Part shown: positions 17,049 through 18,218 of the stretch, piece by piece
How the letters are laid out: every line of letters starts with the position of its first letter
How positions within the stretch are numbered: position 1 is the first letter of the stretch
Source: Candidatus Aveggerthella stercoripullorum
Lineage (GTDB): Bacteria > Actinomycetota > Coriobacteriia > Coriobacteriales > Eggerthellaceae
Direction of reading: 5' to 3'
NCBI GenBank assembly: GCA_018712955.1
Contig: DVGB01000078.1
Location: 1-37,126 of the forward strand
Length of the DNA stretch: 37,126 bases
Made by a program: the position numbers and the translations under genes
The notes under the pieces: model-generated
The model's input: only the letters and a program-made list of their open reading frames with translations
The model's database searches: none
What the model was told of the DNA's origin: nothing

Positions 17049-17124
17049 GGGGCATTAGCTCAGTTGGGAGAGCGCATGACTGGCAGTCATGAGGTCAGGG
17101 GTTCGACCCCCCTATGCTCCACCA
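17049..17124 (+). tRNA. tRNA-Ala (anticodon GGC)
   Basis: A 76-base cloverleaf with encoded CCA fits completely. The acceptor GGGGCAT pairs with ATGCTCC and includes the G3:U70 pair that identifies alanine tRNAs. The D arm is GCTC/GAGC. The anticodon stem is CATGA/TCATG with loop CTGGCAG, giving anticodon GGC for GCC codons. The T arm is AGGGG-TTCGACC-CCCCT. Its last 22 bases plus five flanking bases are repeated 170 bases downstream. Confidence 0.97.
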
Positions 17125-17129
17125 TTAAT
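17103..17129 (+). repeat. Direct repeat, copy 1 (tRNA-Ala 3' end)
   Basis: These 27 bases run from the T loop of tRNA-Ala through CCA into the flank. They are identical to 17273-17299. T-loop-to-3'-end duplications are the usual trace left by tyrosine integrases that target tRNA genes. Confidence 0.85.
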
Positions 17130-17132
17130 GAC

Positions 17133-17163
17133 ACGGCCGCCAACGAAAGTTGGTGGCCGTTTT
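17133..17163 (+). terminator. tRNA-Ala terminator
   Basis: ACGGCCGCCAAC (17133-17144) pairs over 12 positions, one G-U, with GTTGGTGGCCGT (17149-17160) around a GAAA loop. TTT follows and the stem itself ends in T. It begins nine bases after the tRNA CCA. Confidence 0.85.
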
Positions 17164-17172
17164 CGTATACCC

Positions 17173-17222
17173 CGCAGGGGTCGAACCCCGCGAGGGGACG
17201 ACAGCCCAGTGGGCTGTCGTCC
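17173..17222. repeat. Palindromic repeat, copy A
   Basis: About 50 bases made of a T-arm-like element (AGGGGTCGAACCCC), GCGAGGGGACG, and a long perfect palindrome in which GACGACAGCCCA (17198-17209) and TGGGCTGTCGTC (17211-17222) flank a G. The first 28 bases are identical to 17604-17631, and CAGCCCAGTGGGCTGT is also shared. Confidence 0.8.
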
Positions 17223-17272
17223 GAGGAGGGCGGAGCCCGACGTACCGAGACGCGACCGGAGGGAGCGGATCG

Positions 17273-17299
17273 TCGACCCCCCTATGCTCCACCATTAAT
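17273..17299 (+). repeat. Direct repeat, copy 2 (displaced tRNA-Ala 3' end)
   Basis: Exact 27-base duplicate of 17103-17129. The bases before it do not form the 5' part of a tRNA, so this is not a second complete gene. It is followed at once by its own strong terminator. Confidence 0.85.
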
Positions 17300-17337: not shown

Positions 17338-17444
17338 GCGAAGCCCTGCGGCACCGAACCTTGCCGTTCAGCGGGAGCGCGGCGGCCCTCAGGCCAGCCG
17401 CGCCCCCGCTTCAAGGCAATCTTCGGCACCGCAGGGCTTCTCGC
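17338..17444. other. Long imperfect hairpin of about 107 nt, unassigned RNA or element
   Basis: Successive helices are GAAGCCCTGC/GCAGGGCTTC (17340-17349 with 17431-17440), CCGAA/TTCGG (17354-17358 with 17422-17426), TTGCC/GGCAA (17361-17365 with 17415-17419), GCGGG/CCCGC (17371-17375 with 17405-17409) and GCGCGGC/GCCGCGC (17377-17383 with 17397-17403). They are separated by small symmetric internal loops and capped by GGCC-ctca-GGCC. This regular rod looks like selected RNA secondary structure. It lacks the SRP RNA apical motif and the large 6S RNA bubble. No coding frame fits. Confidence 0.55.
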
Positions 17445-17603: not shown

Positions 17604-17654
17604 CGCAGGGGTCGAACCCCGCGAGGGGACGGGCAGCCCAGTGGGCTGTTGTCC
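17604..17654. repeat. Palindromic repeat, copy B
   Basis: Second copy of the element at 17173-17222. The first 28 bases are identical. Then GG replaces A, CAGCCCAGTGGGCTGT is retained, and one C-to-T change follows. It ends six bases before the stop codon of the minus-strand FKBP-like gene and could also serve as that gene's 3' hairpin. Confidence 0.8.
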
Positions 17655-17660
17655 CCTCCG

Positions 17661-18218
17661 CTAGCGGACGGGCAGGTCGGCGATTCCGTGCAAGGTCATT
17701 TCCACGGAGAATGACCGGCAGACGGCGTCGTGGTTGAGATCGAAGGTGACCGAGTCGCCCTCAACGGCGATAACGCGCGCAGGATGGACGTTGCCGTCAG
17801 GACCTTCCAGATGCATCACGGCGCCTTTCTCGAAGACGCATTCGGCTGGCAGCTTGCGACGTTCGATACGCAAGATGCGCTCGGGCGAACGCTCTTCGTA
17901 TGCTTCGTCGGCACCAACGTGCGCAGTATTCGTCTCGCCGACCGCAAGCGTGCGTGCGCACGCGAAAAGCGCAGGTGGCATCAAACGCGCATCGCAAGGA
18001 AGCTCTACGGGATCAGGCTGGTCCAGAAGGACCGTGCCGTCGTCGAAAACTACGCGGTAGGTTATGCGCACGAGCTTCCCGGCGTTGTCTGGCGTATCGT
18101 GCACGGCGCCATGGCTTGATGCCGGGGGAATCAAGCTCTCGGCATCAAGGTGCGCGGGAGCTTGATTTCTCGCCTGCAAGACGCCTTGAAAGCTTTTTCG
18201 CTCATTGTCTTCGTGCAT
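17661..18218 (-). CDS. Divergent FKBP/SlyD-like protein
   Basis: The 185-residue protein has an uncharacterised N-terminal stretch of about 48 residues, followed by an FKBP-like fold: GKLVRITYRVVFDDGTVLLDQPDPVELPC at the start and VTFDLNHDAVCRSFSVEMTLHGI at the end, aligning with the SlyD-like protein at 11320. The usual active-site segment around IPGFDxA is replaced by LMPPALFACARTLAVGE, so isomerase activity is doubtful and a chaperone role is possible. It starts 26 bases after the glutamate-cysteine ligase stop, in the same direction, so they are probably cotranscribed. Only a weak Shine-Dalgarno sequence (GAAAAA) precedes the ATG. Confidence 0.75.
   Translation of the reverse strand: MHEDNERKSFQGVLQARNQAPAHLDAESLIPPASSHGAVHDTPDNAGKLVRITYRVVFDDGTVLLDQPDPVELPCDARLMPPALFACARTLAVGETNTAHVGADEAYEERSPERILRIERRKLPAECVFEKGAVMHLEGPDGNVHPARVIAVEGDSVTFDLNHDAVCRSFSVEMTLHGIADLPVR

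What the first reader, a model, noticed from the sequence alone, without database searches (positions are those of the whole stretch)
17103..17299. tRNA-Ala 3' end exactly duplicated 170 bp downstream
The 27 bases from the T loop of tRNA-Ala through CCA and five flanking bases recur exactly at 17273-17299, each copy followed by a different strong terminator. This is the geometry left by a tyrosine-integrase element using the tRNA 3' end as its attachment core, but only 170 bp separate the copies and no integrase is present. It could be the scar of a deleted island, a minimal non-autonomous element, or a live attachment site.
Basis: partly seen in the sequence, partly recalled or inferred. Interest (0 to 1): 0.7.

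Follow-up and report, generated by a model that had tools for sequence, protein, structure and literature searches.

The report
tRNA-anchored T-arm-mimic repeat unit
The repeated tRNA end is not the scar of a lost genomic island but one copy of a small non-coding repeat, found behind at least 20 kinds of tRNA gene in gut-associated Coriobacteriia, that carries both a copy and a mirror copy of its neighbour tRNA's tail and folds like the classic E. coli tyrT/RtT repeats.

Summary
The interpretation needs replacing. Between the copies lies a ~100-nt structured element (17177-17280). Its left end is the reverse complement of the tRNA's T arm, its right end is the tRNA 3'-end copy, and three more hairpins lie between. 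A covariance model found 113 such elements in the Coriobacteriia loci I fetched. 94 follow an intact tRNA (21 anticodons); most of the others follow truncated tRNA 3' halves or lie at contig ends. Overall, both ends match the element's own tRNA far better than other tRNAs. Covariation is overwhelming. Closely similar cores occur behind unrelated tRNAs of one genome (96% identical, Ser/Ala). Sister species lack the unit at the same tRNA, and their tRNA flank matches the sequence after the window's second copy, so the unit comes and goes as a block. No locus holds an island between the copies. The architecture equals the E. coli tyrT 178-bp repeats (RtT RNA, RF00391), but Rfam's RtT threshold is not met. 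I read it as a class-wide, RtT-like, tRNA-anchored mobile repeat. Whether it acts as folded DNA or RNA is unresolved; I lean to DNA.

The parts
17049..17124 (+). tRNA-Ala(GGC), the anchor gene
   Evidence: ARAGORN; Rfam tRNA 65 bits
17103..17129 (+). direct copy 1: T loop to CCA+5 of the tRNA
17130..17172 (+). unit spacer with terminator hairpin (stem 17133-17160, T-tract); related spacer follows the tRNA-Ala(CGC) of the same genome
17177..17280 (+). structured element (covariance model R1, 109 bits, E 1.4e-27; the window copy is one of the ten sequences the model was built from)
17177..17189 (+). left end: reverse complement of the T arm (GGGGTCGAACCCC); 17177-17184 pairs with 17273-17280 (P1)
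   Evidence: (I3)
17188..17195 (+). P2 mini-hairpin closed by a GCGA tetraloop
   Evidence: fold; covariation
17196..17222 (+). P3 hairpin with conserved AGT loop
   Evidence: fold; covariation
17225..17241 (+). P4 hairpin flanked by tandem GA mismatches
   Evidence: fold
17246..17272 (+). P5 hairpin
   Evidence: fold
17273..17299 (+). direct copy 2: tRNA 3' end copy; its first 8 nt form the 3' strand of P1
17300..17330 (+). terminator after copy 2; homologous to the tRNA-Ala(GGC) flank in element-free sister species
17604..17687 (+). second, decayed element of the same family (42 bits, E 1.8e-9), no tRNA-3' copy after it
   Evidence: (D2, D3)

Best explanation
The window holds one intact unit and one decayed unit of a family of small non-coding repeats that live immediately downstream of tRNA genes in Coriobacteriia. 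A unit is [tRNA 3' end copy - short spacer, often a terminator - reverse complement of that tRNA's T arm - GNGA loop - P3/P4/P5 hairpins - tRNA 3' end]. Shown: the tRNA-sense strand has a conserved, strongly covarying fold in which the inverted T arm pairs with the distal tRNA-3' copy, rebuilding a T-arm duplex with the P3-P5 hairpins bulged at the T-loop position. Shown: both ends track the local tRNA. Shown: units are present or absent at the same tRNA in sister species, and near-identical cores sit behind different tRNAs of one genome. Inferred: units are gained, lost and multiplied as DNA by exchange within the tRNA 3'-end repeats, possibly by a trans-acting tyrosine recombinase or by replication template switching on the folded single strand. 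The latter would also explain why the left arm is re-matched to the right one. The unit keeps the tRNA intact because it brings its own correct 3' end and CCA.
For: 27-bp copy and inverted T arm. Covariance model hits in 71 of 138 Eggerthellaceae genomes and 64 of 298 Coriobacteriia genomes at E<=1e-3 (some weak hits are a different hairpin), but 1 weak hit outside the class in a phylum sample of 296. 113 elements: 94 with an intact tRNA upstream, 21 anticodons, median spacer 53 bp; left arm exact match to own tRNA median 13 nt versus 7 to others; right copy 21 versus 6. Most of the others follow a truncated tRNA 3' half or lie at contig ends. Covariation: 96.2% of cells paired, 189 cells with changes on both sides, 0/500 shuffles as high. 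Sense strand folds better than its complement in 91/113 (RNA) and 103/113 (DNA). Cores 96% identical at tRNA-Ser and tRNA-Ala of one genome while arms and spacers differ. Element-free or decayed states in sisters G001, G002 and in several Adlercreutzia; the flank after copy 2 matches element-free sisters (0/500 shuffles) while spacer 1 does not. Tandem units. DNA-level hints: terminator in 49/56 Eggerthellaceae spacers, G-T pairs 1.5-2.3% versus about 5.7% in tRNA stems, 117/240 triloops of type GNA.
Against: No recombinase is linked. Y1/RAYT transposase presence is not associated (Fisher p=0.48). No circular intermediate or strain-level excision could be seen: one genome per species. Duplication boundaries vary (mostly 18-22 nt before, 0-55 nt beyond the tRNA end), unlike a single fixed crossover. 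RNA energy parameters reproduce the consensus fold of the window unit, DNA parameters do not. The relative RtT is a detected RNA. The model was seeded on tRNA-linked copies, so copies elsewhere could be missed; hairpins sharing only P3 occur away from tRNAs.
Confidence: 0.6

Rival explanations
1. An RNA function, as in RtT: the unit is transcribed with the tRNA and released as a small structured RNA with a tRNA-like 3' end, modulating tRNA processing or the stringent response; repeats and matched arms are kept by selection on the RNA fold.
For: E. coli rtT has the same architecture and ends exactly at the copied CCA. RtT RNAs were seen on Northern blots beside Asn and Lys tRNAs in A. pleuropneumoniae (PMC4986893). 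The sense strand folds better; RNA MFE equals the consensus. P2 loops are often GNRA. Non-Eggerthellaceae units often lack a terminator in the spacer (11 of 19).
Against: 49/56 Eggerthellaceae units lie behind a terminator-like hairpin. G-U pairs are 2.5-4 times rarer than in tRNA stems of the same loci. The copy extends through CCA and often the terminator, beyond anything the fold needs. Sporadic presence within genera.
Confidence: 0.25
2. Pair of att sites or scar left by a tyrosine-integrase island in tRNA-Ala.
For: tRNA 3'-end direct repeat; islands do use the same tRNAs (truncated tRNA halves upstream of units in L100, L126, L129, L139; a recombinase-like fragment in L139).
Against: Same small unit behind tRNAs of 21 anticodons, never seen with cargo between copies. 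Conserved fold and inverted T arm are not part of an att pair. Distal copy lacks the left half-core.
Confidence: 0.05
3. Passive repeats: tandem duplications and gene conversion among tRNA 3' ends, with inverted arms perfected by quasi-palindrome correction, no dedicated enzyme and no function.
For: Variable duplication ends, tandem arrays, spacers sometimes duplicated; scarcity of G-T pairs fits template-switch correction.
Against: P3-P5 with a conserved AGT loop and compensatory change in hairpins not derived from tRNA, and a strand-asymmetric fold, suggest selection; 80-bp cores are shared between unrelated tRNAs.
Confidence: 0.1

Closest known systems
E. coli tyrT 178-bp repeats / RtT RNA (Rfam RF00391, rttR)
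   Same: Unit of 170-180 bp behind a tRNA, each unit ending in the tRNA 3' end with CCA, an inverted copy of the T-arm/acceptor strand (GGGGAAGGAT) about 100 bp before it, hairpins with GNA triloops between. Model R1's four best hits in the tyrT region are the four RtT units. The only RF00391 hit in six Coriobacteriia genomes lies on an element of this family.
   Different: No hit above Rfam's threshold (best 23.4 versus 45 bits); different hairpins (AGT loop); terminator in the spacer; occurs behind many kinds of tRNA (21 anticodons), with arms re-matched to each.
Integron cassettes / attC sites
   Same: Works-like parallel: tandem small units, recombination site rebuilt by folding of one strand.
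   Different: No coding cassettes seen, no linked integrase; site sequence is dictated by the tRNA; order of arms differs from attC as I know it (not searched with an attC model).
REP/REPIN elements with RAYT transposases
   Same: Small non-coding palindromic repeats spreading within a genome.
   Different: tRNA-anchored, 100 nt multi-hairpin; RAYT absent from many carriers and not associated.

Membership tests
RtT RNA (RF00391) | Score at or above the curated gathering score (45 bits) | tested here: not met
   No match in the window; none over cut-off in six genomes, best 23.4 bits in A. caecimuris; none at E<=5 in 16 loci
RtT RNA (RF00391) | Unit follows a tRNA and ends in its copied 3' end, with an inverted T-arm arm and hairpins between | tested here: met
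RtT RNA (RF00391) | Stable RNA released from the tRNA transcript | not testable with these tools
   needs RNA-seq or Northern blots
Tyrosine-integrase island or attachment-site pair | Integrase gene between or beside the repeats | tested here: not met
   no PF00589 domain on the contig
Tyrosine-integrase island or attachment-site pair | Related genomes with cargo between the same copies | tested here: not met
   113 elements, spacers directly behind the tRNA mostly 18-76 bp, no cargo
Integron / CALIN | attC sites with coding cassettes and an IntI integrase | tested here: inconclusive
   units are 100-430 bp and were judged non-coding by reading; attC models and IntI were not searched
REP/RAYT | Associated Y1 (PF01797) transposase | tested here: not met
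   29/52 carriers versus 42/86 others, Fisher p=0.48
Decayed tandem tRNA gene | Remnants of the tRNA 5' half before the second copy | tested here: not met
   sequence before 17273 is the P5 hairpin; ARAGORN finds one tRNA

The most novel reading that the evidence does not exclude
These units are the cassettes of an integron-like system in which the T arm of ordinary tRNA genes serves as the attachment site. A folded single strand rebuilds the T-arm duplex and is recombined into tRNA 3' ends by a trans-acting recombinase. E. coli's tyrT/RtT repeats would be a distant branch of the same system.
Probability: 0.2. Interest if true: 0.85.

Novelty: new variant of a known kind. Interest (0 to 1): 0.62.

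Why it matters
The E. coli tyrT repeats have been known for decades as an oddity of a few tRNA operons. A class-wide family with the same plan, at many tRNA species and with arms that re-match each tRNA, suggests a general, unexplained way for small DNA to colonise tRNA 3' ends. It gives a large comparative data set and named hosts (e.g. Adlercreutzia caecimuris B7) to test DNA versus RNA mechanisms. It also warns that tRNA 3'-end repeats are not by themselves evidence of a genomic island.

Tried and rejected
Island scar or att pair: no cargo or integrase and the arrangement is too widespread. Decayed tandem tRNA: only the last 22 nt of the tRNA are copied. RAYT-driven REP: no association. Known Rfam family: nothing for the element in the window even at E<=1; RtT below threshold. 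Phage carriage: no viral contig has the P3-P4 pattern, one pattern tried. Spread beyond Coriobacteriia with this model: 1 weak hit. The original RtT paper (PMC329039) was not held. Paper searches found no description of such units in Coriobacteriia, in an open-access library only. Weak model hits in G063 (L145) and one in L138 are a different hairpin sharing only P3 and were left out.

Full report
OBSERVATION. tRNA-Ala(GGC) occupies 17049-17124. Its last 22 nt plus 5 flanking bases, TCGACCCCCCTATGCTCCACCATTAAT, recur exactly at 17273-17299, 170 bp on. Each copy is followed by a terminator-like hairpin. In the assembly the 27-mer has one further relative (2 mismatches), at the tRNA-Ala(CGC) gene on another contig, which is also followed by a related, truncated unit. 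So the duplication is real and not chance.

ANATOMY. Between the copies lie a terminator spacer and a structured element. The element begins with GGGGTCGAACCCC (17177-17189), the exact reverse complement of the tRNA's T arm GGGGTTCGACCCC (pair I3), and ends with the second tRNA-3' copy. The tRNA-sense strand folds so that GGGGTCGA pairs with TCGACCCC of the second copy (P1). CC pairs with GG across a GCGA loop (P2), and three hairpins follow: P3 with an AGT loop, P4 with tandem GA mismatches, and P5. Read together, P1 and P2 rebuild a double-stranded T arm with P3-P5 bulged out at the T-loop position. This last sentence is my reading of the fold.

FAMILY. A covariance model from ten copies hits 71 of 138 Eggerthellaceae genomes at E<=1e-3 and 64 of 298 Coriobacteriia genomes, including other families. 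In a phylum-wide sample only one weak hit lies outside the class. Some weak hits are a different hairpin sharing P3. Named hosts include Candidatus Aphodovivens, an uncultured Slackia and Adlercreutzia caecimuris B7. In the fetched loci I kept 113 elements: 94 have an intact tRNA upstream, of 21 anticodons (Ala, Ser, Phe, Val, Glu, Trp, Arg, Met, Leu, Gly, Pro, Asp, Lys, SeC), with a median spacer of 53 bp for those directly behind the tRNA. Most of the others lie at contig ends or behind a truncated tRNA 3' half, as if an island had entered the same tRNA.

TRACKING. For 75 elements directly behind a tRNA, the left arm matches the reverse complement of its own tRNA over a median 13 nt (7 for other tRNAs), and the right copy matches over 21 nt (6 for others). 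In the window's genome the GGC and CGC units differ at one T-arm position in the tRNA and change the arm accordingly. In a set of 27 sequences not used to build the model, 96.2% of cells are paired and 189 cells carry changes on both sides; no shuffle in 500 comes near. That alignment was fitted to the model, so the counts lean towards the structure; the slid controls (27-47% paired) still lie far below.

DYNAMICS. Cores behind different tRNAs of one genome can be nearly identical (G034 Ser-CGA versus Ala-GGC 96%; G027 Phe/Val 87%; G153 Ser/Ala 86%) against a typical 57% between genomes. In the G034 pair the shared stretch is the P3-P5 module; arms and spacers are those of each tRNA. At the window's own locus two congeneric genomes have the same upstream gene and tRNA but no unit. 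Their tRNA flank matches the sequence after the window's second copy (0 of 500 shuffles) and not the unit's spacer. The unit was therefore inserted, or in the sisters removed, as a block at the tRNA 3' repeat. At the orthologous tRNA-Ala(GGC) of Adlercreutzia, species carry a full unit, a decayed unit or none, with several different terminators. Tandem units occur; the window itself has a decayed second unit at 17604-17687.

KNOWN RELATIVE. I recalled the E. coli tyrT repeats and tested them. K-12 carries three 178-bp units behind one of its two adjacent tRNA-Tyr genes, each with the last 19 bp of the tRNA, and another RtT match between the two tRNA genes. Each unit also holds the inverted arm GGGGAAGGAT and hairpins with GCA/GAA triloops. 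Rfam calls these RtT. With filters off, my model's four best hits in the 2.7-kb tyrT region are the four RtT units (14-12 bits; weak). RF00391 gives a single sub-threshold hit in six Coriobacteriia genomes (E 0.042), which falls on an element of this family in A. caecimuris. It gave none in sixteen other loci. The plan is the same; common descent is possible but unproven, so I do not file it as RtT. RtT RNAs are known as transcripts beside Asn and Lys tRNAs in Actinobacillus (PMC4986893).

DNA OR RNA. For RNA: RtT is an RNA; RNA energies reproduce the consensus for the window unit and P1 appears in 103/113 RNA folds versus 92/113 DNA folds. For DNA: 49/56 Eggerthellaceae spacers hold a terminator-like hairpin (8/19 elsewhere); G-T pairs make up 1.5-2.3% of pairs against about 5.7% in tRNA acceptor and T stems of the same loci; half of the triloops are GNA, loops that from general knowledge are exceptionally stable in DNA; copies run past CCA and often through the terminator. 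The sense strand folds better than its complement with both parameter sets, so a single strand is probably the functional form. I lean to DNA-level recombination or template switching. The enzyme is unknown: Y1 transposases are not associated, and phage integrases exist in the genome but not on this contig.

LIMITS. One genome per species; the window is from a fragmented assembly; the model was seeded on tRNA-linked copies, so copies elsewhere are under-counted; no expression data; the literature search covered open-access papers only.

Noticed in passing
window 17340-17440: 100-bp inverted repeat (80% complementary arms) inside the second unit; homologous copies are dispersed many times in the two congeneric genomes (query 2305-2472 hits), a separate genus-specific repeat.
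   Followed up: partly
L145 4740-4835 and 5547-5654 (-); L138 3173-3256 (-): A different dispersed long-stem hairpin, not at tRNAs, that contains the same P3 hairpin (ACAGCCCAGTGGGCTGT); P3 may be a recognition module shared by several repeat families.
   Followed up: no
L139 761-836 to about 3980: Intact tRNA-Phe, then a recombinase-like 104-aa fragment and other genes, then a tRNA-Phe 3' half followed by a unit: an island or its remnant between tRNA and unit.
   Followed up: partly
L200-L206 and L047 (Adlercreutzia tRNA-Ala GGC loci): The terminator directly behind the same orthologous tRNA differs among congeneric species (several unrelated hairpins), showing rapid turnover of tRNA 3' flanks.
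   Followed up: partly
G000:C1:1164-1586 (L087) and G000:C25 end (L088): The window's genome has two further loci, at two tRNA-Arg(ACG) genes, each with two tandem units.
   Followed up: partly
L178 1872-2082: A unit sits 19 bp behind a selenocysteine tRNA gene, with arms matched to it.
   Followed up: no
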